A model generated the notes under the pieces. The model had not been told where the DNA came from. It did no database searches and was given only the letters and a program-made list of their open reading frames with translations. The position numbers were made by a program, and so were the translations under genes. From an uncultured Clostridia bacterium (lineage in GTDB: Bacteria > Bacillota > Clostridia > Oscillospirales > Acutalibacteraceae), in contig CAUCSW010000005.1 of the NCBI GenBank assembly GCA_958445555.1, positions 1 through 13,171 on the forward strand: 13,171 bases of DNA, in the 5' to 3' direction. This document shows, in pieces, positions 253-13,111 of the stretch. Position 1 is the stretch's first letter. Each line of letters opens with the position of its first letter.

Positions 253-1515
253 ATGAAGTCGGAAATTTTCGATGTGACGGTCATCGGCGGCGGCGCTTCG
301 GGCTTGGCGGCGGCGATCTCCGCAAAAAGAAGCTTTCCCGAGGCGAGGGTGCTGGTGATCGAAAAGAACGACCGCGTCGGCAAAAAGCTTGCCGTTACCG
401 GAAACGGTCAGTGTAATATAACCAATAACTCGTTTTCGCCCGACAGGTATCACGGCTCCCCCGAATTCGCGTACCGCATAATAGCAAGCTTCGACCCCGA
501 AAAACAAGCGTCCTTTTTCCTGTCACTCGGACTGCCCGTGGCGTTCAGACAGGACGGCAAGGCGTATCCGATGTCGCTTCAGGCGTCGTCGGTCGTTGAT
601 GCACTGAGGTTTTCGGCAGCGGAGGCAGGTGTGAATATTTTGTGCGGAGCAAAGGCGGAAACGCCGTCGGTCAGCAAAGACGGGGCGTTTTTTATCCCCA
701 CGGACAAAGAAAGATTCATTTCAAAAACCTTAATAATCGCCTGCGGCGGCGAGGCGGGAGGAAAGCTCGGATCCGACGACGGCTACCGCTTTCTCTCGGC
801 CTTCGGCCACCGCATCACGGATCTCAGACCCGCAATAGTGCAGCTGCGTTCATCCGAACCGTTTTTGCGTGCGCTTAAGGGCGTTAAGGTTACGGCGGCA
901 TTGTCGGTCGACACTGATAAGGGCAGGATAAACGCGCCCGCGGGCGACCTGCTTTTCTGCGATTACGGTGTTTCGGGGCCGGGTGTCCTGCTCCTCTCTT
1001 CATATTACGGTGCGGACAAGCCGTTTTGCATCAAAGCGGACCTCACGCCGTATCTGGACGAGACCGAGCTGCTCGGACTTCTGAAAACAAAACGCGACTT
1101 CTGCGGCACAAGAAAAACCGAAGAGCTTTTGGGCGGGCTGCTGCAAAAGCGGCTCGCACAAACGGTCTTGAAGATTGGGGGACTGAGCCCCGAAACGCAG
1201 ATAGGCAGAGTGTCCGACTCGGAGCTGAAAAGGGTATCCGATATTTTGAAAAGCTTTAAGATAAACATTACAGGTACGCGCGGAATGAATGACGCTCAGG
1301 TCACGGCGGGCGGCGCCGACACCGCGGAGTTTTACGAAGACACGCTTATGTCGCGCAGAATACCGGGACTTTTTGCCTGCGGCGAGGTTTTGAATGCCGA
1401 CGGAGACTGCGGCGGCTTCAACCTGTCCTTTGCCTGGGCAAGCGGATATACCGCGGGTCTTTGTGCGGCGGATCGTGTAAAGACCTCGCAAAAGAAAACG
1501 GAATGCCGAATATGA
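253..1515 (+). CDS. FAD-dependent oxidoreductase, BaiN/HI0933 (YhiN-like) family
   Basis: Predicted soluble flavoprotein of 420 residues, a usual length for this family. A Rossmann dinucleotide-binding motif, GGGASGLAAA, lies at residues 12-21, with the ribose-binding acidic residue E37. It is followed by the family signature GKKLAVTGNGQCNITN at 43-58. Near the C-terminus, AGGADTAEF and GEVLNADGDCGGFNLSFAW (from residue 377) form the second FAD-binding segment typical of HI0933 proteins. The best-known relatives include BaiN, implicated in bile-acid 7-dehydroxylation, but most members have no proven substrate and no bai genes are visible here, so a bile-acid role should not be assumed. The ATG at 253 is preceded by GAGGAGG at 232-238, a rather long spacing of 14 nt. 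The gene overlaps the next flavoprotein by ATGA (1512-1515), suggesting translational coupling. Confidence 0.88.
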   Translation: MKSEIFDVTVIGGGASGLAAAISAKRSFPEARVLVIEKNDRVGKKLAVTGNGQCNITNNSFSPDRYHGSPEFAYRIIASFDPEKQASFFLSLGLPVAFRQDGKAYPMSLQASSVVDALRFSAAEAGVNILCGAKAETPSVSKDGAFFIPTDKERFISKTLIIACGGEAGGKLGSDDGYRFLSAFGHRITDLRPAIVQLRSSEPFLRALKGVKVTAALSVDTDKGRINAPAGDLLFCDYGVSGPGVLLLSSYYGADKPFCIKADLTPYLDETELLGLLKTKRDFCGTRKTEELLGGLLQKRLAQTVLKIGGLSPETQIGRVSDSELKRVSDILKSFKINITGTRGMNDAQVTAGGADTAEFYEDTLMSRRIPGLFACGEVLNADGDCGGFNLSFAWASGYTAGLCAADRVKTSQKKTECRI

Positions 1516-3125
1516 AGTTTATAATCAAGAATGTGATATTCCCGATAAAAGAGGGATTTGATCCGAGAAAGATGACCGAGAGGGAACTCGCGAGAATTAC
1601 CGAAAAGGCGACATCGACACGTTCGGGCACGCTTTTGTCGGCAAAGCTTTACAGGTGCTCGGTCGATGCCAGAAAGAAAAGCGATATCTGCCTTTGCTGC
1701 TCGGTTATAGCGGAAACTGCGCTCGGTGAGCACGAGGTGAACAGAGCGTTTAAAAGGTTTTCACCCGAAAGATATGAATATAAGCCCTATGTCGTCAAAA
1801 AAGCATTACGGCAACCGTCCGCAAGACCGATAGTAGTAGGCTTCGGTCCCGCGGGAATGTTCGCCGCTCTGATCCTCGCCCGTGCGGGAATGGATCCGAT
1901 AGTCCTCGAAAGGGGAGACGATGCAGATAAAAGATCCGCCGCGGTAGAAGTCTTAAACCGAGACGGTATACTTGATACCGAAAGCAACATCCAATTCGGA
2001 GAGGGCGGAGCCGGCACCTTTTCGGACGGCAAACTCAACACCGGAATAAAGGATCCGCGGTGCCGCAAGGTGCTTGAGATCCTCTCGGAATTCGGTGCGG
2101 GGAGCGATATTCTCGTCGATTCAAAGCCCCATGTGGGGACGGACAGGCTTATAACAACGATCAAAAACATCAGGCGGGAAATAATCGGATGCGGCGGCGA
2201 GGTCCGCTTCCGCACCCGCTTCGTCTCCTTCGGTGAAAAACACGGCAGTATCGTTTCGGTCGTGACCGAGGGCGCAGACGGGGCAGAAGAACTGCTTTGC
2301 TCCGATATGGTGCTTGCAACGGGTCATTCCGCAAGAGATACATTTGAAACGCTTTATGCCGCGGGACTCACAATGACCCCGAAACCGTTTTCGGTCGGGG
2401 CGCGTATAGAGCACCCGCAGTCGCTCATAAACAGTGCGCAGTACGGCGACTTCTCGGAAAATCCTCTGCTCGGCGCGGCGGACTATAAGCTGTTTTGTCA
2501 TCTTCCGAACGGCAGGGGCGTTTATACCTTCTGTATGTGTCCGGGCGGATATGTGGTCAACGCTTCAAGCGAGAGCGGCGGTGTCGTCACAAACGGGATG
2601 AGCTTCTCCGGCAGAAACGGAACCAACGCCAATTCGGCGGTGCTGGTAGGGGTAGGCCCCGAGGACTACGGCATGGGAGTGCTCGACGGGATGTATTTCC
2701 AGCGCCGAATAGAACGAAAGGCGTATGAGATCGCGGGAGGATACCGCTGCATCACTCAGACGGTCGGTGACTTTTTAAACCGTAAGAGCGGCACCTCTCC
2801 GACTTCGGTCAGACCCACAGTAAGACCCGAGCCGTTTTTGGGGGACTTAAGAGCCGTGCTCCCCGATTTCGCGGCTGATGCCCTGTCGGACGGAATAAGG
2901 GTTTTCGAAGGCAGACTCAAAGGCTTTTCGTCACCCGACGCATTGTTGACGGGACCCGAAACAAGATCCTCATCGCCTTTACGCATAATAAGGAATGACG
3001 GCCTTCAGAGCTCTGTTAAGGGGATATACCCATGCGGCGAAGGCGCGGGCTACGCCGGCGGGATAATCAGTGCCGCCGTTGACGGAATAAAAGCGGCGGA
3101 GGCAATAATAAATAAGTATATGTGA
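1512..3125 (+). CDS. NAD(P)/FAD-dependent dehydrogenase, COG2509 family
   Basis: Predicted flavoprotein of 537 residues, cytosolic, with no signal peptide or membrane segments. An N-terminal domain of about 100 residues precedes a Rossmann motif GFGPAGMFAALILARAG from residue 110. The strongest family mark is GEGGAGTFSDGKLNTG from about residue 163. Further typical segments are GHSARDTF, PFSVGARIEHPQ, the Cys-containing CMCPGGYVVNASSE, and the C-terminal FAD loop GEGAGYAGGIISAAVDGIKA. COG2509 proteins are widespread in Firmicutes and have no well-established reaction. I chose the ATG at 1512 because it forms a 4-bp overlap (ATGA) with the preceding gene and gives the usual MKFIIKN-like N-terminus. 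An ATG at 1503 is possible, and longer versions from 1461 are unlikely. There is no clear terminator behind it. Confidence 0.87.
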   Translation: MKFIIKNVIFPIKEGFDPRKMTERELARITEKATSTRSGTLLSAKLYRCSVDARKKSDICLCCSVIAETALGEHEVNRAFKRFSPERYEYKPYVVKKALRQPSARPIVVGFGPAGMFAALILARAGMDPIVLERGDDADKRSAAVEVLNRDGILDTESNIQFGEGGAGTFSDGKLNTGIKDPRCRKVLEILSEFGAGSDILVDSKPHVGTDRLITTIKNIRREIIGCGGEVRFRTRFVSFGEKHGSIVSVVTEGADGAEELLCSDMVLATGHSARDTFETLYAAGLTMTPKPFSVGARIEHPQSLINSAQYGDFSENPLLGAADYKLFCHLPNGRGVYTFCMCPGGYVVNASSESGGVVTNGMSFSGRNGTNANSAVLVGVGPEDYGMGVLDGMYFQRRIERKAYEIAGGYRCITQTVGDFLNRKSGTSPTSVRPTVRPEPFLGDLRAVLPDFAADALSDGIRVFEGRLKGFSSPDALLTGPETRSSSPLRIIRNDGLQSSVKGIYPCGEGAGYAGGIISAAVDGIKAAEAIINKYM

Positions 3126-3358: not shown

Positions 3359-4300
3359 TTGAATCTTATTCATATGAAATATGCGGTTGAAATAGCCGAT
3401 AAAAAATCAATCAATAAGGCGGCGGAAACACTGTTTGTCGGTCAGTCGGCACTCAGCCGCGCGGTCAAAGAACTTGAGTCGTCGCTCGGTGTGACGATAT
3501 TTCAGAGGAGCACCAAGGGAATGGAACCGACCCCCGAGGGCGAGGTGTTCTTGAGATGCGCGAGAACAGTCCTCAAACAGGTCGATGACATAGAAAATAT
3601 GTTTATCGGCGAGAGCGCGGTTAAAAAGCGCTTTTCGGTGTCGGGACCCAGAGCAAGCTATATTTCGGCGGCTTTTTCATCATTCGTAAACAGTGTGGGC
3701 AACAACGATAAATATGAGTTTATATACCGCGAGACCAATTCCATGAGAACGATCAAGAATGTGCTGACGGACGATTATAAGCTCGGCATACTGCGTTACG
3801 CATCTGTTTTCGACGGCTACTATAAGACCATGGTGGAAGAAAAAGGACTGGCAGCGGAGCTTATATGCGAATTTGAATATGTACTGCTCACGAGCAAGGA
3901 CTCTCCGATAGCAAAGGAAAATGACCCGAGCGAGGAATTCCTTGCCGACTATACCGAGATCACCCACGCAGATCCTTATGTTCCCTCATTGCCTCTTGCC
4001 GAGGTGAAAAAGGAAGAAATATCGGATGTATCCGCAAGAATGGTCTTCGTCTTTGAAAGAGCAAGTCAGTTTGAACTGCTTTCGAATAATCCGTTTACCT
4101 ATATGTGGGTGTCGCCGATACCAAAGGAGCAGCTTGATCGCTTCGGACTTGTTCAGATAAGGTGCAGCGAACCTCATAAGACTTATAAGGATGTTCTGAT
4201 ACATCGTAAGGATTATGCCCTGTCGGATATAGACAGACTGTTTATCGAACACCTCGTTATGTCCAAACGGTCGACGGTGGACGGGGAGGCGGCAAAATAA
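3359..4300 (+). CDS. LysR family transcriptional regulator
   Basis: 313 residues, a normal length for a LysR-type regulator. The N-terminal winged helix-turn-helix is clear: SINKAAETLFVGQSALSRAVKELESSLG at about residues 17-44, followed by the wing IFQRSTKGMEPTPEG. The rest should be a periplasmic-binding-protein-like effector domain, but its sequence is too divergent to suggest a ligand. Translation starts at TTG (3359) with a strong GGGAGGG site 6 nt upstream. It is transcribed toward the adhE operon on the same strand and is separated from it by 527 non-coding bases. It could control that operon, itself, or something elsewhere; only proximity supports the first. Its own upstream region has a phased repeat array and an 18-bp palindrome. 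Confidence 0.9.
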   Translation: MNLIHMKYAVEIADKKSINKAAETLFVGQSALSRAVKELESSLGVTIFQRSTKGMEPTPEGEVFLRCARTVLKQVDDIENMFIGESAVKKRFSVSGPRASYISAAFSSFVNSVGNNDKYEFIYRETNSMRTIKNVLTDDYKLGILRYASVFDGYYKTMVEEKGLAAELICEFEYVLLTSKDSPIAKENDPSEEFLADYTEITHADPYVPSLPLAEVKKEEISDVSARMVFVFERASQFELLSNNPFTYMWVSPIPKEQLDRFGLVQIRCSEPHKTYKDVLIHRKDYALSDIDRLFIEHLVMSKRSTVDGEAAK

Positions 4301-4459
4301 GCAGCTGCGCCGCAGAACGGACGGCGGCGAGTCGGACGGCAGCAATACGGAATGTGAGCGGGGGCGGACAGTAAACGGCGCAAATGACGGTCAGGGCTCG
4401 GCGGTACCGCTCTGAAGGCTATATTCCGTAAATGCAATACCTATATGAAAAAACGGCAA
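4301..4459. other. Non-coding stretch between the LysR gene and the adhE promoter
   Basis: No credible gene on either strand. It contains an 8-bp inverted repeat, TACGGAAT at 4346-4353 and ATTCCGTA at 4423-4430, and a 10-bp perfect palindrome GCGGTACCGC at 4401-4410. A small GC-rich hairpin, CTGC-GCC-GCAG, lies just after the LysR stop, but there is no T-run to make it a standard terminator. Readthrough from the LysR gene into adhE therefore cannot be excluded. Confidence 0.4.
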
Positions 4460-4488
4460 TTTACAGGGAATATAAACTTTGTTAAAAT
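4460..4488 (+). promoter_or_regulatory. Predicted sigma-A promoter of the adhE operon
   Basis: TTTACA at 4460-4465 and TAAAAT at 4483-4488 are separated by exactly 17 nt, each one mismatch from consensus. Transcription would begin near 4495, giving a leader of about 330 nt before the adhE ATG. The -10 box lies inside the Rex-like operator, which is the expected layout for repression by blocking RNA polymerase. Confidence 0.65.
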
Positions 4489-4496
4489 AATAACAA
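4479..4496. promoter_or_regulatory. Rex-like redox operator
   Basis: TTGTTAAAATAATAACAA has perfect outer arms (TTGTTA/TAACAA) in an 18-bp frame. It differs at one position from TTGTTAA-N4-TTAACAA, the usual clostridial Rex target. Rex is a repressor that leaves DNA when NADH/NAD+ is high, and adhE is a classic member of its regulon. The position over the -10 box of the predicted promoter fits. The rex gene itself is not in this window. Confidence 0.7.
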
Positions 4497-4827
4497 GCGA
4501 AAGCGGAGCAGCGGATCATATGTGCCCCGAAAGGGTGACGGGAAGCGTATTGCGGGACCTTTTAAGGGCAGATATCGGCACCGAGCGGTGAGCCCTGAGG
4601 CGACAGGAGTCAGACCCCGATCGACATTAAAGTTTCGTTCGATCCGGCACAGGGGAGAAACAAACCGAAGGCGGGACATGACCCTCTGTGTACTAAGGTG
4701 CCGGGCAGACCGACGCAACTTGTCGAAATTTGAGACGATCTGTCGCAGTTTGCAGCAGTTTGCAGAAGCTTGCCGCAGGCGGGTTTTCGCACATAAGAAG
4801 TGTTTATAACCTATCGGGAGGTATTTT
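4497..4827 (+). other. Long, apparently structured 5' leader of adhE mRNA
   Basis: About 330 nt lie between the predicted start of transcription and the adhE ATG. Complementary segments seen by eye are: CCC-GAAA-GGG at 4526-4535; AGGGC/GCCCT (4565-4569, 4592-4596) enclosing CACC-GAGC-GGTG (4579-4590); GATCGA/TCGATC (4619-4624, 4639-4644); and a long-range 7-bp pair CCGGCAC/GTGCCGG (4644-4650, 4698-4704) with an inner AGGG/CCCT. A phased repeat array follows at 4711-4780, and a GGGAGG ribosome binding site at 4816-4821. I do not recognise a known riboswitch class. The small open frame at 4522-4809 has no ribosome binding site or recognisable protein and is not treated as a gene. The leader may hold a riboswitch, a protein-binding RNA or an attenuator. 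Confidence 0.45.
4711..4780. repeat. Degenerate 10-bp tandem repeat in the adhE leader
   Basis: Consecutive 10-mers run in register: CGACGCAACT, TGTCGAAATT, TGAGACGATC, TGTCGCAGTT, TGCAGCAGTT, TGCAGAAGCT, TGCCGCAGGC. Within it, CAGTTTGCAG is duplicated exactly at 4746-4755 and 4756-4765. The segment GTCGAAATTTGAGAC resembles GTCGGAATTGAGTC in the array upstream of the LysR gene, so the two arrays may share an origin or a binding protein. Confidence 0.55.
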
Positions 4828-7545
4828 ATGAAAGCAAAAGAAAGAATGATCGTTGACAGCGTGGAAACGCTGGAGCAGGCGATTGCATCGATCAGAGAGG
4901 CTCAGAATAAGTACGCAACCTATACACAGGAGCAGGTGGATAAGATCTTCTTTGCAGCCGCCTGTGCCGCCGACAAGGCGAGGATCCCGCTTGCAAAAAT
5001 GGCGGTGGAAGAGACAGGAATGGGTATAGTCGAAGATAAGGTCATCAAAAACCACTATGCCGCCGAGTACATCTACAATGCTTATAAGGACACAAAGACC
5101 TGCGGAGTCGTAGAAGAGGATAAGGCGTACGGAATCCGGAAGATCGCCGAACCGCTCGGAGTCATTGCGGCGGTCATACCCACCACAAACCCCACATCTA
5201 CTGCGATCTTCAAATGCCTGCTTGCGCTTAAAACACGCAACGCCATAATAATCAGCCCTCATCCGAGAGCTAAAAAGTCTACCGCTGCCGCCGCAAAGGT
5301 GGTTCTTGATGCAGCGGTCGCAGCCGGCGCACCCGAGGGGATCATCAACTGGATAGATGTTCCGAGCCTTGATATGACAAACCTTGTTATGAAAGAGGCG
5401 GATATCATACTTGCCACCGGAGGCCCCGGAATGGTAAAGGCTGCATACTCCTCAGGCAAGCCTGCGCTCGGCGTCGGAGCCGGAAACACCCCCGCCATTA
5501 TCGACGAGAGTGCGGATATCGTTCTTGCGGTCAGCTCAATAATCCATTCCAAGACATTTGATAACGGTATGATCTGCGCTTCGGAGCAGTCGGTTATCGT
5601 TCATAAGAATGTTTATGACGGCGTAAAGACCGAGTTCGCAAACCGCGGCTGCTATTTCCTTAACCCCGCGGAGACCGAAAAGGTCAGAAAGACAATAATC
5701 ATCAACGGTTCACTCAACGCCAAGATAGTCGGTCAGCCCGCCGCCAAGATCGCCGAGCTTGCCGGAGTAAAGGTCCCCGAGGGAACCAAGATACTTATAG
5801 GCGAAGTTTATAGTGTTGTGCTTTCCGAAGCATTCGCACATGAAAAGCTTTCGCCGGTGCTCGCAATGTACAAGGCAGAGGACATTGAGGATGCTTTCAA
5901 AAAAGCCGAGCATCTTATCGCCGACGGCGGTTACGGACACACCTCTTCCATTTATATCAACGAGACGACCGAAAGAGAAAAGCTCAACGAATTTGCCGAG
6001 AGAATGAAGACCTGCCGTATTCTCGTGAATACTCCTTCTTCACACGGCGGTCTCGGAGACCTCTATAACTTCAAGCTTACCCCGTCTCTGACACTCGGCT
6101 GCGGCTCTTGGGGCGGCAACAGCGTCAGCGAAAATGTCGGCGTGAAGCATTTGCTGAATATCAAGACAGTGGCTGAAAGGAGACAGAATATGCTTTGGTT
6201 CAGAGCGCCCGAAAAGGTCTATCTTAAGAAAGGCTGCCTGCCGGTTGCTCTTGATGAGCTGCGGTATGTTATGGATAAAAAGAGAGCCTTCGTCGTAACC
6301 GACAGCTTCCTCTATGAGCACGGCTACACCAAGCCGATAACCGATAAGCTCGATGAACTCGGTATAGTACATACAACATTCTTTGATGTAGCTCCCGACC
6401 CGACGCTTGCCTGTGCAAACGAAGGCGCCGCACAGTTGGCTGCATTCAAGCCCGACTGCATCATAGCTCTCGGCGGCGGTTCCGCAATGGATGCCGCTAA
6501 GATCATGTGGGTGCTTTATGAGCATCCGGAAGTCGACTTTATGGATATGGCAATGCGCTTTATAGATATCCGTAAGCGTGTTTATACCTTCCCGAAGATG
6601 GGCGAAAAAGCCTACTTTATCGCTATCCCGACCTCTGCGGGTACCGGCTCCGAGGTGACCCCCTTCGCGGTCATAACCGATGAAAAGTCGGGCGTTAAAT
6701 ATCCGCTTGCCGACTATGAGCTGCTGCCCGATATGGCAATAATCGATACCGATTTCCATATGAGTGCACCTAAGGGACTTACCGCCGCTTCCGGTATAGA
6801 TGCGGTCAGCCACGCGCTTGAGGCATACGCTTCGCTTATGGCGACCGATTATACCGACGGTCTTGCGCTCAAGGCACTCGATACCATATTCGAATACCTC
6901 CCCCGCGCATATGATAACGGCCAGACCGATGTCGAAGCCCGTGAAAAGATGGCTAACGCAGCTACAATGGCAGGTATGGCATTTGCAAACGCTTTCCTCG
7001 GCGTCTGCCACTCAATGGCGCATAAGCTCGGCGCTTTCCACCATATAGCACACGGCGTTGCCAACGCTTTGATGCTTGAAGAGGTGCTCCGCTTCAATGC
7101 ATCCGAGGCTCCCGCCAAAATGGGTACCTTCTCGCAATACGATCATCCTCATACCCTCGCAAGATATGCCGAGGTAGCCGACCATCTCGGTCTCGGCGGA
7201 AAGACCGACGAAGAGAAGCTTGAAAACCTCATAAAGGCAGTCAATGCTCTTAAGGATCGCGTCGGAATTAAAAAGACCATCAGAGACTATGTTCCCGACG
7301 AAAAAGACTTCCTTAACAGACTTGATGCTATGAGCGAGCAGGCATTCGACGATCAGTGTACGGGAGCCAATCCGCGTTATCCGCTCATAAGCGAGATCAA
7401 GCAGATGTATCTCAACGCATATTACGGCAATGCTCACTTTACCGAAACCGAAAAGCCGACCGCCGCTATGCTTCCCGCAGCCGAAGACGAAGGCGACTTC
7501 AAAAAGGCATATCGCAGAGCAAAAAGCGGTCTTAAAAAGAACTGA
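4828..7545 (+). CDS. adhE: Bifunctional acetaldehyde-CoA/alcohol dehydrogenase AdhE
   Basis: Full-length AdhE of 905 residues (E. coli has 891). It converts acetyl-CoA to acetaldehyde and then to ethanol, oxidising two NADH, and family members assemble into cytosolic spirosome filaments. The N-terminal aldehyde dehydrogenase domain (about 1-450) has the catalytic cysteine C250 in FDNGMICASEQS. The C-terminal iron-dependent alcohol dehydrogenase domain (about 465-880) has the nucleotide-binding GGGSAMDAAK from residue 549 and TSAGTGSEVTPF. All four metal ligands appear at the expected spacing: D658, H662, H728 and H742. The last 25 or so residues form a basic tail. GGGAGG at 4816-4821, 6 nt before the ATG, is a strong ribosome binding site. 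It is the first gene of a seven-gene run and lies behind a Rex-like operator, consistent with induction by high NADH. Confidence 0.97.
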   Translation: MKAKERMIVDSVETLEQAIASIREAQNKYATYTQEQVDKIFFAAACAADKARIPLAKMAVEETGMGIVEDKVIKNHYAAEYIYNAYKDTKTCGVVEEDKAYGIRKIAEPLGVIAAVIPTTNPTSTAIFKCLLALKTRNAIIISPHPRAKKSTAAAAKVVLDAAVAAGAPEGIINWIDVPSLDMTNLVMKEADIILATGGPGMVKAAYSSGKPALGVGAGNTPAIIDESADIVLAVSSIIHSKTFDNGMICASEQSVIVHKNVYDGVKTEFANRGCYFLNPAETEKVRKTIIINGSLNAKIVGQPAAKIAELAGVKVPEGTKILIGEVYSVVLSEAFAHEKLSPVLAMYKAEDIEDAFKKAEHLIADGGYGHTSSIYINETTEREKLNEFAERMKTCRILVNTPSSHGGLGDLYNFKLTPSLTLGCGSWGGNSVSENVGVKHLLNIKTVAERRQNMLWFRAPEKVYLKKGCLPVALDELRYVMDKKRAFVVTDSFLYEHGYTKPITDKLDELGIVHTTFFDVAPDPTLACANEGAAQLAAFKPDCIIALGGGSAMDAAKIMWVLYEHPEVDFMDMAMRFIDIRKRVYTFPKMGEKAYFIAIPTSAGTGSEVTPFAVITDEKSGVKYPLADYELLPDMAIIDTDFHMSAPKGLTAASGIDAVSHALEAYASLMATDYTDGLALKALDTIFEYLPRAYDNGQTDVEAREKMANAATMAGMAFANAFLGVCHSMAHKLGAFHHIAHGVANALMLEEVLRFNASEAPAKMGTFSQYDHPHTLARYAEVADHLGLGGKTDEEKLENLIKAVNALKDRVGIKKTIRDYVPDEKDFLNRLDAMSEQAFDDQCTGANPRYPLISEIKQMYLNAYYGNAHFTETEKPTAAMLPAAEDEGDFKKAYRRAKSGLKKN

Positions 7546-7559
7546 AAGGGGAACGGTTT

Positions 7560-8309
7560 ATGAATCTCGACAGAATTATCGCAGTAAGAAACAATAAAAC
7601 GGTGTACCGTGACGGCGACCGTTGTCTGAAGGTCTTCAATGAGGATTATTCAAAGGCTGATGTCCTCAACGAGGCGCTCAATCAGGCGAGGGTCGAAGAA
7701 ACCGGACTCCATATCCCGAAAATACTCGAAGTTACCGTCATCGACGGAAAGTGGACGATCGTAACGGAGTTTATAAAGGGTAAGACCCTGAGCGATCTTA
7801 TGAAGGAAAATCCCGACAATAAGGAAGAGTATCTGAAGCTTTTCGTGGATCTTCAGCTTGAGATGCACTCAAAGACCTGCCCGCTGCTCAATAAACTCAA
7901 AGATAAGATGAACAGAAAGATCAGCGAGACCGATCTTTCAGCAACCGTGAGGTATGATCTTCATACCCGCCTTGAGGCAATGCCCAAGCATAATAAGCTT
8001 TGCCACGGAGACTTCAATCCGTCGAACATCATCATCACCGAGGACGGCACACCCTATATCCTCGACTGGTCGCACGCAACTCAGGGTAACGCCTCCGCAG
8101 ATGCGGCAAGGACATACCTGCTTTTCTGGCTCAACGGAGATATTTCCGGCGCCGACGAGTACCTTAAACTGTTCTGCGATAAGAGCAATACCGCCAAACA
8201 GTATGTTCAGAAGTGGATGCCTATCGTAGCAGCCTCGCAGAGCGTAAAGGGAAATGCCGCCGAAAGAGAATTCCTGCACTCCTGGATCAATGTCGTTGAT
8301 TATGAATAA
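7560..8309 (+). CDS. APH/choline kinase-fold phosphotransferase of unknown substrate
   Basis: 249 residues with the catalytic features of the aminoglycoside phosphotransferase/choline kinase superfamily. K24 (CLKVF) and E38 are the likely ATP-positioning pair, HGDFNPSN at 149-156 is the catalytic loop with base D151, and LDW with D169 is the metal-binding motif. Family members phosphorylate small molecules such as choline, sugars, thiamine or aminoglycosides, and some act on proteins. Nothing here identifies the substrate, and an antibiotic-resistance role is not supported by the setting. AAAGGGG at 7545-7551 provides a ribosome binding site 8 nt before the ATG, 14 nt after the adhE stop and 13 nt before the next gene, so it is almost certainly co-transcribed with fermentation and hydrogenase genes. 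The fold is secure; the function is unknown. Confidence 0.82.
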   Translation: MNLDRIIAVRNNKTVYRDGDRCLKVFNEDYSKADVLNEALNQARVEETGLHIPKILEVTVIDGKWTIVTEFIKGKTLSDLMKENPDNKEEYLKLFVDLQLEMHSKTCPLLNKLKDKMNRKISETDLSATVRYDLHTRLEAMPKHNKLCHGDFNPSNIIITEDGTPYILDWSHATQGNASADAARTYLLFWLNGDISGADEYLKLFCDKSNTAKQYVQKWMPIVAASQSVKGNAAEREFLHSWINVVDYE

Positions 8310-8322
8310 TGAGGTGTAACCA

Positions 8323-8568
8323 ATGAAAATTACTGTTTGTATAGGCTCATCCTGTCATATTAAAGGATCACGCCAGGTTGTTGAACAGCTCCAGAATCTC
8401 ATCAAGGAAAACGGTGTGGGAGATACCGTCGAACTTGCCGGAACCTTTTGCATGGGAAAATGCAGACAGGGTGTCTGTGTCACGGTCGATGATGAATTCT
8501 ATTCGGTGACTCCGGAAAGAAAAAAAGAAAAAAAAAACAACAATGTGATCCCGAAGGTGAAGGGATAA
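8323..8568 (+). CDS. Thioredoxin-like [2Fe-2S] ferredoxin (NuoE-like), first copy
   Basis: Small protein of 81 residues with the cysteine pattern of thioredoxin-fold [2Fe-2S] ferredoxins: C6 and C11 (CX4C in CIGSSC), then C43 and C47 (CX3C in FCMGKC). A further Cys at 52 is probably not a ligand. Such proteins relate to the NuoE/HydC electron-entry subunits and carry single electrons to or from hydrogenases and other flavin or Fe-S partners. GAGGTG at 8311-8316 lies 6 nt before the ATG. The stop and the next start share one base (TAATG). The C-terminal end is very lysine-rich because of A7-G-A10 in the DNA, where the second copy has a normal acidic and aromatic stretch. This may be true sequence, slippage-prone, or an error. 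Confidence 0.85.
   Translation: MKITVCIGSSCHIKGSRQVVEQLQNLIKENGVGDTVELAGTFCMGKCRQGVCVTVDDEFYSVTPERKKEKKNNNVIPKVKG
8520..8537 (+). repeat. Homopolymer run A7-G-A10 inside the first ferredoxin gene
   Basis: Seven A, one G and ten A lie near the 3' end of the coding region, encoding KKEKK. Runs of this length invite replication or transcriptional slippage. A change of one base would alter the C-terminus and uncouple the stop from the start of the next gene at 8568. The frame as given is open and ends normally. Confidence 0.8.
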
Positions 8569-8828
8569 TGATAGTCTTGATATGCGTCGGTTCCTCCTGC
8601 CACTTGAAGGGTTCCGAAAAAATAGTGGAGCTCTTTCAAAAGGAGATCGAAAAACGAAGACTTGATTTCGAGATTACACTTGCCGGCAGCTTTTGCACCG
8701 GCAGGTGTAATCGTGTCGGTGTGACCGTTACGATAGATGATGAAGTCTATACCGGTATCACCCCCGAAACCTTTAACGAGTTTTTTGAAGATAAAGTGAT
8801 GAAGCATATCGCCGAAGGAGAGAATTGA
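8568..8828 (+). CDS. Thioredoxin-like [2Fe-2S] ferredoxin (NuoE-like), second copy
   Basis: Protein of 86 residues, clearly a paralogue of the preceding gene. It has the same CxGSSCHxKGS N-terminal motif (C6, C11) and AGSFCTGRC (C43, C47), so the CX4C and CX3C ligand pairs are identically spaced. It should carry one [2Fe-2S] cluster and act as a soluble or subunit-type electron carrier. Its C-terminus (ITPETFNEFFEDKV) looks like the family norm, unlike that of the first copy. The start overlaps the upstream stop by one base (TAATG), and its own TGA overlaps the TTG start of the hydrogenase-like gene (TTGA, 8825-8828). The overlaps suggest tightly coupled translation and a fixed ratio to the hydrogenase-like protein. 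Confidence 0.87.
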   Translation: MIVLICVGSSCHLKGSEKIVELFQKEIEKRRLDFEITLAGSFCTGRCNRVGVTVTIDDEVYTGITPETFNEFFEDKVMKHIAEGEN

Positions 8829-10507
8829 CGGCTATGGAGTGTCTGACTCTTAAAAAATCAAACTGCAAAAATTGCTATAAGTGTATACGCTACTGTCCCG
8901 TGAAATCAATAAGATTTTCGGGAAATCAGGCATACATAATCGGCAATGAGTGCATAATGTGCGGTCATTGCTTTGTGGTCTGCCCTCAGGATGCCAAGCA
9001 GATAGTGGATGAGACCGAAAAGGTAAAGGTGCTCCTGCAATCGGGGGACCCTGTTATCGTCAGCCTTGCGCCCTCATTTGTCGCAAACTATGAGGGAGTC
9101 GGTATCGGCGAAATGCGAAAGTCACTAAAAAAGCTCGGATTTTTCGATGTTGAGGAGACCGCTATAGGCGCCACGATCGTAAAAAGAGAATATGAGCGTA
9201 TGGTTAAGGAGGAAAAGAGGGATATAATCATAACCTCCTGCTGCCATTCCGTGAACCTTCTGATACAGAAGTACTTCCCTTCGGAACTGAACTTTCTCGC
9301 AGATGTACTTTCTCCCATGCAGGCGCATTGTAAGGATATAAAAAGACGCTACCCTAACGCCAAGACCGTTTTTGTGGGACCCTGTGTCGCAAAAAAGGAT
9401 GAGGCGCAGTACTATGAGGGAATAGTGGATGCCGTCCTTACCTATGATGAGCTCACCGCTTGGCTCAAGGCGGAAAACGCCGAACCCGAGCAAGTGTCGG
9501 ACAGCTGCGAGGAGAGCCGTGCGCGCTTCTTCCCGACGACCGGCGGCATACTCAAATCGATGACCGAATTCGATCCCGACTACACCTATATGGCTATCGA
9601 CGGTACCGATAACTGTATCGCCGCACTCCGCGATATCGAGGACGGCAAGCTTCACCACTGCTTTATCGAAATGTCTGCCTGTGTGGGCAGCTGCGTCGGC
9701 GGACCCGTAATGGAAAAATTCCATCGCTCACCCGTAAAGGATTATGTTGCGGTCGCGGAATTTGCGGGCAAAAAGGACTTTGATGTCAAGCAGCCCGAAT
9801 CTGTCGAAATCAAAAAGACCTTTACCGTGATCGAGAGAAAACTCAGCCGCCCCTCGGAGGAGGAGATACGCGACACACTCCGTCAGATGGGCAAAATGAA
9901 GCCGTCGGACGAACTCAACTGCGGTTCCTGCGGCTATAACACCTGCCGTGAAAAGGCAATAGCGGTGTGTCAGGGCAAGGCTGAAATATCAATGTGCCTG
10001 CCCTACCTCAAGGATAAAGCGGAAAGCTTTCCCGACAACATTGTGCGCAACACGCCCAACGGCCTCATTGGGCTGAATCAAAAGCTTGGGGTCCCGCAGC
10101 TAACTACAGCACCTCTAAATATGCTTAATATCAGGACGGCGTCGGATGTTCTCGGCGATCAGGTCGTGCGAATCCTGGATCCGGGCGACTTCCTTGAGGT
10201 GCTCTCGACCGGCAGAAATGTGGCGGATAAAAGGGTATACCTTGCCGAATACGAAAAGTACGCCGAAGAGACTATCATCTACGATAAGGAATATAAGCTG
10301 CTTGTCTGTATCCTGCGCGATGTCACCGAAGAGGAAACACAACGCGAGAAAAAGGAAAACATCAGCCGTCAGACGGTCGAGATAGCCGATAAGGTGGTCG
10401 ATAAGCAGATGCGTATAGTGCAGGAAATAGCATCTCTGCTCGGAGAGACCGCCGCCGAGACCAAGATCGCGCTGACTAAGCTCAAGGAGTCGATCGGGGA
10501 TGAATAA
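8825..10507 (+). CDS. [FeFe]-hydrogenase-like protein with Fe-S and PAS domains (HfsB-like, putative H2/redox sensor)
   Basis: 560 residues. Domains in order: two [4Fe-4S] ferredoxin motifs (C14/C17/C20/C24 and C43/C46/C49/C53); an H-cluster domain (about 70-330) with L1 TSCCHS (C139, C140), L2 GPCVAKKDE (C187) and L3 MSACVGSCVGG (C286, C290); a CGSCGYNTC Fe-S domain (C366, C369, C374, C391); a PAS-like domain (about 405-500); and a C-terminal coiled-coil-like helix. All four H-cluster cysteine ligands and the proton-transfer Cys are present, but L1 has HS where catalytic enzymes have Pro. This layout matches HfsB-type or Group C [FeFe] hydrogenases, thought to sense H2 rather than produce it in bulk. 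The TTG start at 8825 (AGGAG at 8816-8820) overlaps the upstream stop; ATG at 8834 is the alternative. The end overlaps the phosphatase gene by 8 bp. Confidence 0.88.
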   Translation: MTAMECLTLKKSNCKNCYKCIRYCPVKSIRFSGNQAYIIGNECIMCGHCFVVCPQDAKQIVDETEKVKVLLQSGDPVIVSLAPSFVANYEGVGIGEMRKSLKKLGFFDVEETAIGATIVKREYERMVKEEKRDIIITSCCHSVNLLIQKYFPSELNFLADVLSPMQAHCKDIKRRYPNAKTVFVGPCVAKKDEAQYYEGIVDAVLTYDELTAWLKAENAEPEQVSDSCEESRARFFPTTGGILKSMTEFDPDYTYMAIDGTDNCIAALRDIEDGKLHHCFIEMSACVGSCVGGPVMEKFHRSPVKDYVAVAEFAGKKDFDVKQPESVEIKKTFTVIERKLSRPSEEEIRDTLRQMGKMKPSDELNCGSCGYNTCREKAIAVCQGKAEISMCLPYLKDKAESFPDNIVRNTPNGLIGLNQKLGVPQLTTAPLNMLNIRTASDVLGDQVVRILDPGDFLEVLSTGRNVADKRVYLAEYEKYAEETIIYDKEYKLLVCILRDVTEEETQREKKENISRQTVEIADKVVDKQMRIVQEIASLLGETAAETKIALTKLKESIGDE

Positions 10508-11672
10508 TCTTTGCGCCGATATCGACAGGAAAAGCATAAACCACGAAGGCGAACAACTATGCGGCGATCATATCGATATTATTGAGCAGAACGAAAACTC
10601 AACCGTTATCGTGCTGGCGGACGGGCTCGGCAGCGGTGTCAAGGCAAGCATACTGTCGACCTTGACTTCGAAGATCATTTCCACCATGATGTCAGAGGGT
10701 CTCCCGCTTGAAGAATGCGTTAAGACCATAGCGGCGACCCTTCCGATCTGCTCGGTCCGCGGAGTCGCCTATTCGACCTTTACGATAATCCATATAATAA
10801 ACAATACCACCGCCGAACTCATACAGTATGATAATCCTCAGGTGATATTGCTCCGCGATTGCGTGAACTACGATTATCCCAAGACGGAATTGAATATTGA
10901 AGGCAAAACGATATATAAATCGGTGATACGGCTGCAGGAAAACGATATATTTGTCGCCATGAGCGACGGTTGTCCCCACGCCGGCATCGGAATTGCCTTT
11001 AATTTCGGCTGGAAAAGGGAAGATATTGCGAGCTTTATGGAAACACTCGCCCATGTCGGTTATACCGCAAAGACCCTCTCAACAATGCTTATCGACGAGT
11101 GCGATAAACAGTACGGTCATCACCCCGGTGACGATGCAACCGCCTGCGTCGTCCGTATAAGGAAACGCGAACCGATGAACATTCTGTTCGGACCTCCGCG
11201 CAACAGAGACGATTGCGACCGTATGATGTCGCTCTTCTTCTCAAAAGAGGGTAAGCATATCGTCTGCGGCGGTACAACATCGTCAATAGCTGCAAAATAT
11301 CTCGGCAAGCCTGTCAAGGCGTCGCTCAATTTCGAACGCAGCGATGTGCCGCCCATAGCCGAAATAGAGGGCGTGGACCTTGTAACGGAAGGCGTTATAA
11401 CCATAAACAAGGTCATAGAATATGCAAAAGACGCACTCGGCCCCAATGAACTCTATGAACATTGGAGCTATAAACACGACGGAGCCTCATTGATCTGCCA
11501 AATGCTCTTTGAAGAGGCGACCGATATAAACTTTTTTGTCGGCAGAGCGGTCAACCCCGCCCACCAGAACCCCGATCTTCCCATTAACTTCAATATAAAG
11601 ATGAATCTCGTGGAGGAGCTTTCCTCCTGCCTTAAACAGATGGGAAAGAGAATAAAGGTCAGCTACTTTTGA
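10500..11672 (+). CDS. SpoIIE/PP2C-family serine phosphatase with unassigned C-terminal domain (HfsC-like)
   Basis: 390 residues. The N-terminal half (about 1-220) is a PP2C/SpoIIE-type phosphatase domain with metal-binding acidic residues in VLADGLGSG (D41), MSDGCPHAG (D156) and GDDATACVV (D211, D212). Relatives remove phosphate from Ser/Thr of anti-sigma-factor antagonists or similar switch proteins. The C-terminal half (about 221-390) has no domain I recognise; it contains GGTTSSIAAKYLGK, VDLVTEGVITINKVIEY and a HWSYKHDGASL segment. The start overlaps the upstream sensor-like hydrogenase gene by 8 bp, with AAGGAG at 10484-10489 as ribosome binding site. Phosphatases of this type are regular neighbours of PAS-containing [FeFe] hydrogenases, so it is probably the output arm of an H2 or redox signal. 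No target protein or kinase partner is seen in the window. Confidence 0.87.
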   Translation: MNNLCADIDRKSINHEGEQLCGDHIDIIEQNENSTVIVLADGLGSGVKASILSTLTSKIISTMMSEGLPLEECVKTIAATLPICSVRGVAYSTFTIIHIINNTTAELIQYDNPQVILLRDCVNYDYPKTELNIEGKTIYKSVIRLQENDIFVAMSDGCPHAGIGIAFNFGWKREDIASFMETLAHVGYTAKTLSTMLIDECDKQYGHHPGDDATACVVRIRKREPMNILFGPPRNRDDCDRMMSLFFSKEGKHIVCGGTTSSIAAKYLGKPVKASLNFERSDVPPIAEIEGVDLVTEGVITINKVIEYAKDALGPNELYEHWSYKHDGASLICQMLFEEATDINFFVGRAVNPAHQNPDLPINFNIKMNLVEELSSCLKQMGKRIKVSYF

Positions 11673-11675
11673 AAG

Positions 11676-11680
11676 AAGGA
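11676..11680 (+). promoter_or_regulatory. Ribosome binding site fixing the ATG start of the last hydrogenase gene
   Basis: AAGGA lies 6 nt before the ATG at 11687. An in-frame TTG at 11669 overlaps the previous stop but has no ribosome binding site at proper distance, so the ATG is preferred. Confidence 0.65.
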
Positions 11681-11686
11681 AAAAAT

Positions 11687-13111
11687 ATGCGAAAATTTGA
11701 TACAAAGGTTCAGCACCTCAAGTACAAGGTGCTTCGAGAGGTCGCAAAACTTGCGTGGAATGACACCCTTCTTGATAATGTGCTTGACATTCCCAAGACG
11801 ATTGTGCCCGGCAATACACCTACGATGCGCTGCTGCGTCTATAAGGAGCGGGCGATCTTAGGCGATCGCGTGAAACTCGCAATGGGCGGAGATAAGGATA
11901 ATCCCAATGTCATCGAGGTCATCGAGACCGCCTGCGACGAATGTCCGATGGGCGGCTATGAAGTGACAAATGCCTGCAGGGGATGCCTTGCGCACAGATG
12001 TGAGGATGTCTGCCGCTTCGGTGCCATCTCATTTGATCAAAATCATGTGGCACATATAGACAAATCAAAATGTAAGGAGTGCGGTGCCTGTTCAAAGGTC
12101 TGCCCTTACACTGCCATAATCAGCAGAAGACGCCCCTGCGAGAACGCCTGCAAGATCAAAGCCATATATATGAATGAAAATAAGGCGGCGGCAATAGATA
12201 ACAATAAGTGCATTGCCTGCGGCGCCTGCGTTTATCAGTGCCCGTTCGGCGCAATAACCGATAAGTCCTTCATTCTGGACGCGATAGACATCATAAAAAA
12301 GAGCGAAAATAACACCAAGTATAAGGTGTTCGCGGTGGTTGCACCGTCGATATCCAGTCAGTTTACCTATGCAAAACTCGGACAGGTCATAACGGGACTG
12401 AAAAAACTCGGCTTTTATACCGTCATCGAGGCGGCTATGGGTGCGGATATGGTGGCCTATGCCGAATCTGCGGAGTTGAGCGAAAAGGGATTCCTTACAA
12501 GCTCATGCTGCCCCGCCTTCGTAAGCTATATCGAAAAGAGTTTTCCTGCCATGCTGCCTTATGTTTCCCATAATCTTTCGCCTATGGCGGCAATCGCAAA
12601 ATACATAAAGGAACATGAGGAGCCCTGTAAGGTCATCTTCATAGGACCCTGTACCGCTAAAAAGGCGGAGGTTCAAAAGGAGACCGTGAAGCCTTATGTG
12701 GATGTCGCAATGACATTTGAAGAGCTCCAGGCGCTTTTCGACAGCAAAGAGATCGATATAACCGTTTTGGAAGAGGATGTCCTGGACAACGCTTCTTATT
12801 TCGGCAGAATATTTGCCCGTTCGGGCGGTCTTTCCGACGCTGTCAGACAGGGACTTAAAGAACACGGAAATGAGGACTTTGAACTCAAAGCGTGCGCCTG
12901 TGACGGAATAGAGGCCTGCAAGATAGCCCTCCTCAAAAAGAGTAAGGGCGTGCTGGATGCCAACTTTATTGAGGGTATGGCTTGTGTCGGCGGCTGCATA
13001 GGCGGTGCGGGATGTCTCACCCACGGTGAAAAGAATAAGGCAGAGGTTGATAAATACGGTATGGAGGCCCATGAAAAAACCATAACCGATGTTATCTCCA
13101 TACTCAAATAG
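11687..13111 (+). CDS. [FeFe] hydrogenase, Group B type
   Basis: 474 residues from the ATG at 11687. A Cys-rich N-terminal part (C49, C50, C83, C86, C97, C100, C105, C109) leads into ferredoxin-like clusters at C129/C132/C135/C139 and C175/C178/C181/C185, with C151 and C155 between them. The catalytic domain follows, with L1 TSSCCPA (C274, C275), L2 IGPCTAKKAE (C322) and L3 MACVGGCIGGAG (C433, C437). All H-cluster ligands and the proton-transfer Cys are present, and L1 keeps the Pro of active enzymes. This arrangement is that of Group B [FeFe] hydrogenases, common in gut Clostridia and considered to make H2 from reduced ferredoxin. It is cytosolic, with no signal peptide or NADH-binding domain. 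The maturases HydE, HydF and HydG are not in the window. It lies 14 nt behind the phosphatase gene and appears to be the last operon member. Confidence 0.92.
   Translation: MRKFDTKVQHLKYKVLREVAKLAWNDTLLDNVLDIPKTIVPGNTPTMRCCVYKERAILGDRVKLAMGGDKDNPNVIEVIETACDECPMGGYEVTNACRGCLAHRCEDVCRFGAISFDQNHVAHIDKSKCKECGACSKVCPYTAIISRRRPCENACKIKAIYMNENKAAAIDNNKCIACGACVYQCPFGAITDKSFILDAIDIIKKSENNTKYKVFAVVAPSISSQFTYAKLGQVITGLKKLGFYTVIEAAMGADMVAYAESAELSEKGFLTSSCCPAFVSYIEKSFPAMLPYVSHNLSPMAAIAKYIKEHEEPCKVIFIGPCTAKKAEVQKETVKPYVDVAMTFEELQALFDSKEIDITVLEEDVLDNASYFGRIFARSGGLSDAVRQGLKEHGNEDFELKACACDGIEACKIALLKKSKGVLDANFIEGMACVGGCIGGAGCLTHGEKNKAEVDKYGMEAHEKTITDVISILK

What the first reader, a model, noticed from the sequence alone, without database searches (positions are those of the whole stretch)
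4828..13111. adhE, a kinase, paired ferredoxins, a sensor-type hydrogenase, a phosphatase and a Group B hydrogenase in one apparent operon
Seven same-strand genes have gaps of at most 14 nt or overlaps of 1, 4 and 8 bp and sit behind one good promoter. The hydrogenase part is known in hfs-type loci; having adhE at its head would place ethanol formation and H2 metabolism, the two main electron sinks, under one redox-controlled transcript with a built-in sensor and phosphatase. Operon structure is read from spacing; the joint physiological role is inference.
Basis: partly seen in the sequence, partly recalled or inferred. Interest (0 to 1): 0.7.

Follow-up and report, generated by a model that had tools for sequence, protein, structure and literature searches.

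The report
Ethanol–hydrogen operon, Ruminococcus albus type
A Clostridia-type contig carries, in one apparent operon, the genes for making ethanol and hydrogen plus a probable hydrogen sensor; this arrangement was already described in Ruminococcus albus, but here the redox-repressor gene that heads it there is missing while a likely binding site for such a repressor sits on the promoter.

Summary
Seven same-strand genes (4828-13111) encode AdhE, an APH-fold kinase, two thioredoxin-like [2Fe-2S] ferredoxins, a HydS-type [FeFe] hydrogenase, a SpoIIE/PP2C phosphatase and a group B [FeFe] hydrogenase. The arrangement is known: plasmid pRUMAL01 of Ruminococcus albus 7 has the same order (67-80% protein identity), and published RNA-seq reports that eight-gene cluster falling 111-fold in co-culture with an H2 consumer. 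Clostridium thermocellum Cthe_0422-0430 is a cousin. The window differs in one tested feature: rex, which lies between lysR and adhE in R. albus, is absent. Instead an 18-bp Rex operator (one mismatch, 4479-4496) overlaps the extended -10 of the best promoter. Of 34 loci with a readable adhE upstream region, 18 have rex in cis and 16 do not. The canonical operator is present in 13/16 without cis-rex and 5/18 with it (not significant once kinship is allowed for). Another palindrome, ATCGATA-N7-TAYCGAT, is in 18/18 with cis-rex and 0/16 without (6 of 6 independent pairs), but in only 12 of 27 further cis-type rex loci. This suggests, without proof, that two Rex paralogues with different operators exchange control of one operon. 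The finding is real but largely known; the Rex exchange is the new part.

The parts
3359..4300 (+). LysR-type regulator, conserved neighbour upstream of the operon (TTG start)
   Evidence: PF00126 3.5e-19; lysR on the same strand within 3.8 kb upstream of adhE in 26 of 34 loci, window included (counted by hand)
4460..4488 (+). promoter TTTACA-17-TAAAAT, extended -10 (TGT)
   Evidence: the extended -10 lies at the same place in the operator in all 18 loci printed
4479..4496 (+). Rex operator TTGTTAAAATAATAACAA (1 mismatch to TTGTTAANNNNTTAACAA) over the -10
   Evidence: only match within 3 mismatches in the window; 0 of 200 shuffles of the 424-nt region have a site as good
4497..4827 (+). unusually long leader (operator start to ATG 349 nt; 53-102 nt to the first gene in the 17 relatives with the operator); no Rfam match
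4828..7545 (+). adhE, bifunctional acetaldehyde-CoA/alcohol dehydrogenase, 905 aa
   Evidence: NF010378 1391 bits, cutoff 951
7560..8309 (+). APH-family kinase, 249 aa, with HGDFNPSN and LDW stretches
   Evidence: PF01636 1.5e-15; stretches read
8323..8568 (+). thioredoxin-like [2Fe-2S] ferredoxin A, 81 aa
   Evidence: PF01257 1.7e-8
8568..8828 (+). thioredoxin-like [2Fe-2S] ferredoxin B, 86 aa
   Evidence: PF01257 2.1e-9
8834..10507 (+). HydS/HfsB-type putative H2-sensing [FeFe] hydrogenase, 557 aa from ATG (TTG 8825 possible)
   Evidence: PF02906 1.4e-48, PF04060; 69.5% to the R. albus 7 homologue over its length; PAS-like C-terminus in the model
10500..11672 (+). SpoIIE/PP2C-type phosphatase (HfsC-like), 390 aa
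11687..13111 (+). group B monomeric [FeFe] hydrogenase (HydA2/HfsD-like), 474 aa from ATG (TTG 11669 possible)
   Evidence: TIGR04105 562 bits, cutoff 450; 75% to the R. albus gene in the same place

Best explanation
This is an R. albus-type ethanol/H2 operon read from the promoter at 4460-4488. Shown: gene content and order, orthology to R. albus pRUMAL01, conserved active-site residues, absence of rex in cis, and a canonical Rex operator on the -10. Inferred: a canonical Rex encoded elsewhere represses the operon while NADH/NAD+ is low and releases it when NADH builds up. HydS binds H2 at its H-cluster and passes the state through its PAS-like/coiled tail to the SpoIIE phosphatase and/or the kinase, which set the activity of a DNA-binding partner, possibly the neighbouring LysR. 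At high H2 the cell then makes AdhE (ethanol sink) and the ferredoxin-linked group B hydrogenase.
For: Order and identity to R. albus 7. Published regulation of that cluster by co-culture with an H2 consumer (PMC6776011; PMC10838669). Order kept in relatives. H-cluster Cys invariant in HydS (C137, C184, C283, C287; 44 sequences) and in the last hydrogenase (C275, C322, C433, C437; 66 sequences). PP2C Asp residues invariant in the phosphatase (D41, D156, D211, D212; 36 sequences). Rex operator of the consensus given in PMC9600882 and PMC8457756. 15 of 15 relatives without cis-rex have one Rex match elsewhere in the genome.
Against: No transcript or protein data for this organism; its genome is not held, so its own Rex was not seen. 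Three of 16 loci without cis-rex lack the operator. No Pfam or NCBIfam PAS hit in this HydS, and that part of the model is of low to middling confidence. The target of kinase and phosphatase is not known. In T. saccharolyticum, deleting the HydS homologue hfsB raised ethanol and hydrogenase activity (PMC5707799), so the sign of the signal may differ.
Confidence: 0.72

Rival explanations
1. Two units: an adhE-kinase unit, and a separately promoted ferredoxin-HydS-SpoIIE-hydrogenase module that merely sits behind it.
For: 15 of 47 relatives with enough upstream sequence have the HydS module without adhE, 12 of 67 without the kinase, so the module can stand alone.
Against: Gaps of 13-14 nt in the window with no terminator-like site in them; joint regulation of the whole cluster reported in R. 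albus.
Confidence: 0.12
2. HydS is not an H2 sensor but a working hydrogenase or an electron-transfer partner of the two [2Fe-2S] proteins.
Against: PAS-like run and long helix at the C-terminus, phosphatase neighbour, and the phenotype of hfsB deletions, which its authors read as regulatory.
Confidence: 0.25
3. The ATCGATA-N7-TAYCGAT box of the cis-rex relatives belongs to LysR, not to the cis Rex.
For: It lies just upstream of the -35 region, as LysR-family sites often do (recalled); outer TATATC arms persist in several loci without cis-rex (by eye).
Against: The LysR DNA-binding region shows no consistent difference between the groups by eye while the box is in 18/18 vs 0/16. The box precedes a second cis-type rex with no lysR in the interval (L104), and the rex of L122 and L124 with no lysR hit in the 1.5 kb read upstream.
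Confidence: 0.35

Closest known systems
R. albus 7 pRUMAL01 unit lysR / rex-adhE-kinase-fd-fd-hydS-spoIIE-hydA2 (Zheng et al. 2014: not held, seen only as a reference, content recalled; Greening et al. 2019, PMC6776011: passages)
   Same: Same order and orientation; 67-80% protein identity; lysR upstream
   Different: R. albus has rex between lysR and adhE and a perfect ATCGATA box, and its best match to the canonical operator has 5 mismatches; the window has no rex, a canonical operator and a long leader
C. thermocellum Cthe_0422-0430 (PMC3848806, PMC3561251: passages)
   Same: rex, adhE, aminoglycoside-phosphotransferase gene, sensory hydrogenase and SpoIIE gene in one region whose genes fall together under furfural
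   Different: Output hydrogenase is classed as trimeric (Cthe_0428-0430), not group B; rex is in the region
Thermoanaerobacterium hfsABCD (PMC5707799, PMC11837493: passages)
   Same: HfsB/HydS, HfsC phosphatase and HfsD/HydA2-like hydrogenase together
   Different: The operon as described has four genes and no adhE
Rex regulon of Clostridiaceae (PMC9600882, PMC8457756: passages)
   Same: Operator TTGTTAANNNNTTAACAA before fermentation and hydrogenase genes
   Different: Here it heads a joint ethanol/H2/sensor operon

Membership tests
R. albus-type adhE-hydS-hydA2 operon | gene content and order adhE-kinase-fd-fd-hydS-spoIIE-hydrogenase | tested here: met
R. albus-type adhE-hydS-hydA2 operon | rex at the head of the unit (present in R. 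albus; absent in 16 of 34 loci tested here, so perhaps not defining) | tested here: not met
   no rex ORF or tblastn hit between lysR and adhE in the window
R. albus-type adhE-hydS-hydA2 operon | co-transcription and H2-dependent expression | not testable with these tools
   needs RNA from this organism
Group B [FeFe] hydrogenase | TIGR04105 above cutoff | tested here: met
   562.1 vs 450 bits
HydS (group C sensory [FeFe] hydrogenase) | orthology and H-cluster ligands | tested here: met
   69.5% to the R. albus 7 homologue; ligand Cys invariant in 44 sequences
HydS (group C sensory [FeFe] hydrogenase) | C-terminal PAS domain | tested here: inconclusive
   no Pfam or NCBIfam PAS hit in the window protein nor a Pfam one in the R. 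albus protein; a few listed homologues carry PF00989, a PAS family by recall; PAS-like order of strands and helices at 408-496, block pLDDT 43-77
HydS (group C sensory [FeFe] hydrogenase) | senses H2 | not testable with these tools
   needs biochemistry
Rex regulon | canonical operator at the promoter | tested here: met
   1 mismatch, over the -10
Rex regulon | Rex binding and release by NADH | not testable with these tools
   needs gel shift or DAP-seq

The most novel reading that the evidence does not exclude
The operon has been handed back and forth between two Rex repressors: a cis-encoded, divergent Rex with its own operator ATCGATA-N7-TAYCGAT upstream of the promoter, and the genome's canonical Rex acting on TTGTTAA-N4-TTAACAA over the -10. 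Gain or loss of the cis gene goes with gain or loss of its box, and more loosely with the canonical operator; the window is a canonical-Rex version with an added 5' leader.
Probability: 0.42. Interest if true: 0.55.

Novelty: new variant of a known kind. Interest (0 to 1): 0.35.

Why it matters
In R. albus this operon marks the switch between ethanol plus some H2 and acetate plus more H2, a choice that feeds H2 consumers in the rumen. The natural set of loci with and without cis-rex offers a direct way to separate redox control (Rex) from H2 control (HydS), and gives a testable operator for the cis-type Rex. For the C. thermocellum gene in that place (Rex_1799) the one passage of PMC8457756 that names it gives identity and expression but no motif.

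Tried and rejected
Non-orthologous output hydrogenase: searches used a last-hydrogenase query that I had translated one base out of frame (11688) and gave 34-45% identities. With the right frame identity is 67-89% over 65 relatives, and R. albus HydA2 is also TIGR04105. Dropped; those 'HydB' rows are to be ignored. PMC6776011 calls the R. albus enzyme group A1; NCBIfam scores it with the monomeric B1 model.

Riboswitch or known RNA in the leader: no Rfam match; folding z -1.52 with 6 of 100 shuffles as stable: not convincing. No DNA relative of 4300-4830 in plasmids; one 31-nt match of the leader in 295 family genomes.

Rex exchange, results against it. On the HydS tree the canonical operator runs opposite to cis-rex in 3.0 of 6 independent pairs, the same way in 0.1, and does not differ in 2.9 (median p 0.25), so that half is not significant once kinship is allowed for. 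Presence of another Rex in the genome goes with the canonical operator (16 of 23 against 1 of 9, Fisher 0.0049) but not significantly on the tree (median p 0.25; there I scored L025 as lacking a canonical Rex). The 2-mismatch limit and the box were chosen after looking at the same 34 loci. L025, L061 and L070 have neither cis-rex nor the operator. In 27 further cis-type rex loci (30 fetched, 3 from genomes already used dropped) the box with at most 1 mismatch is present in 12: 8 of 15 followed by adhE or the kinase, 4 of 12 not (counted by hand). L027 and L077 have cis-type rex without the box. Of 295 genomes, 28 hold a perfect box (the backward control pattern: 2), but only 8 of the 28 have it within 150 nt upstream of a cis-type rex, and 58 of the 295 have such a rex (matched by hand). 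Near-copies inflate counts (L030/L036, L033/L037, L032/L035, L063/L078, L058/L059).

Literature on a non-canonical Rex operator or on lysR beside this operon: searches listed nothing that I recognised as describing it from titles and abstract starts; most listed papers were not opened, and Zheng et al. 2014 is not held.
Full report
What is there. The window holds two FAD-dependent oxidoreductase genes, a LysR-type regulator (3359-4300) and then seven close-packed genes, all on +. Families: AdhE far above the NCBIfam cutoff (1391 vs 951 bits); an APH-family kinase; two small thioredoxin-like [2Fe-2S] proteins; a HydS-like [FeFe] hydrogenase with an Fe-S domain after the catalytic part; a SpoIIE-type phosphatase; and a group B monomeric [FeFe] hydrogenase (TIGR04105, 562 vs 450 bits). 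Two of the quoted overlaps depend on TTG starts; ATG 8834 and ATG 11687 are likelier.

It is known. A tblastn of HydS against plasmid records put R. albus 7 plasmid pRUMAL01 first, 69.5% over the whole length. Its annotated neighbourhood reads lysR, rex, adhE, phosphotransferase, two [2Fe-2S] proteins, HydS, SpoIIE and the last hydrogenase, called HydA2 in the literature. Against R. albus the window proteins score AdhE 75%, kinase 75%, ferredoxins 70 and 67%, HydS 70%, SpoIIE 80% and last hydrogenase 75%. Greening et al. 2019 (PMC6776011, passages) report that a putative eight-gene cluster with hydrogenase, bifunctional alcohol/aldehyde dehydrogenase and putative sensory hydrogenase had the greatest fold change, 111-fold down, in co-culture with an H2 consumer, while ethanol fell from 8.7 to 0.3 mM; they propose H2 sensing through the PAS hydrogenase and a phosphatase. 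Zheng et al. 2014 is the primary source; it is not held, and I know its content from recall and from papers citing it. C. thermocellum Cthe_0422-0430 has rex, adhE, an aminoglycoside-phosphotransferase gene, sensory hydrogenase and SpoIIE gene in a region that fell together under furfural stress (PMC3848806; PMC3561251; passages).

How widely it is kept. One scan of bacterial genomes kept the best 80 of at least 573 relatives; with the two plasmid loci this makes 82. A ferredoxin lies before HydS in 77 of 77 with room, SpoIIE follows HydS in 76 of 77, the kinase precedes in 55 of 67, adhE in 32 of 47 with at least 4.6 kb upstream. A last hydrogenase was found by the motif filter in 69 of 83 loci, window included; of the 14 without, eight have at most 129 nt of room, three are cut at 563-783 nt, and in three (L057, L079, L082) none starts within the 2.6 kb examined.

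The difference: rex. Between lysR and adhE in the window there are 527 nt and no rex. At 4479-4496 lies TTGTTAAAATAATAACAA, one mismatch from the Clostridiaceae Rex operator quoted in PMC9600882 and PMC8457756 (passages). It is the only match within 3 mismatches in the window; shuffles of the window give 0.39 such matches, 64 of 200 having at least one, but no shuffle of 200 of the 424-nt upstream region has a site with as few mismatches. In 13 loci without cis-rex, window included, and 5 with it, the operator carries TAAAAT or TATAAT after TG(T/A) at the same place. In 17 of these 18 it lies 53-102 nt before the first gene; in the window 349 nt before adhE, so the window has some 250-300 nt of extra leader of unknown origin.

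Two classes. Of 34 loci with the 5' end of adhE and over 250 nt before it, 18 have rex in cis and 16, window included, do not. With at most 2 mismatches, the canonical operator is in 5 of 18 against 13 of 16 (Fisher 0.0026) and the box ATCGATA-N7-TAYCGAT in 18 of 18 against 0 of 16 (Fisher 4.5e-10; kinship ignored in both). Of 32 genomes searched, all 15 without cis-rex have one Rex match, 29-36% identical to the R. albus operon Rex; of the 17 with cis-rex (49-59%), 8 have at least one more. Of 20 elsewhere-encoded Rex proteins read (14 of those 15 genomes, and 6 second copies), 18 have a TASQIRxD-type helix followed by FGxFGQQGYGY; the 20 cis-type ones have GEVQVRKD or close to it, followed by SGxGKPKxGY or close to it (by eye; L083 and L102 are the two that depart). 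On the HydS tree the cis-rex state changes at least 6 times on well supported branches; the box goes with it in 6 of 6 independent pairs (p 0.031), whereas the canonical operator gives no significant result. LysR's DNA-binding region shows no consistent difference between the classes by eye. A second cis-type rex in one genome, ahead of a lactate dehydrogenase gene and with no lysR in the interval, has a perfect box (L104). In 27 further cis-type rex loci the box occurs in 12, and most perfect boxes in 295 genomes lie elsewhere, so it is neither universal nor confined to rex promoters.

Reading. The gene-level finding is real and already in print for R. albus. What the window adds is a version controlled, by inference, through a Rex encoded elsewhere rather than a cis-encoded one, and comparison suggests that this exchange has happened repeatedly. 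Which protein binds the ATCGATA box is not shown. Interest is moderate: the operon itself is no surprise to a specialist, while the operator exchange is cheap to test and would add to how redox and H2 signals are combined.

Noticed in passing
window 4497-4827: Some 250-300 nt of extra leader between promoter and adhE compared with relatives; no Rfam match, one 31-nt match in 295 family genomes (L103).
   Followed up: partly
window 253-3125: Two neighbouring FAD-dependent oxidoreductase genes (TIGR00275 family and PF21688 family) upstream of lysR; no link to the operon was tested.
   Followed up: no
L104 305-1978 and 2746-3483: A second HydS-like gene divergent from a second cis-type rex that is followed by lactate dehydrogenase- and fumarase-like genes (named from the translations, by eye), with a perfect ATCGATA box between them.
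   Followed up: partly
L027 2229-5543: HydS followed directly by the last hydrogenase, with rex before the ferredoxin and no SpoIIE gene next: the one of 77 loci with room that lacks it.
   Followed up: no
L057, L079, L082: HydS and SpoIIE present but no hydrogenase gene found within 2.6 kb after them: the sensor pair may exist without a neighbouring output hydrogenase.
   Followed up: no
window 10500-11672, residues about 230-390 of the phosphatase: Conserved C-terminal part of the SpoIIE-type phosphatase with no Pfam hit and a mostly poor model; may be the partner-binding part.
   Followed up: partly
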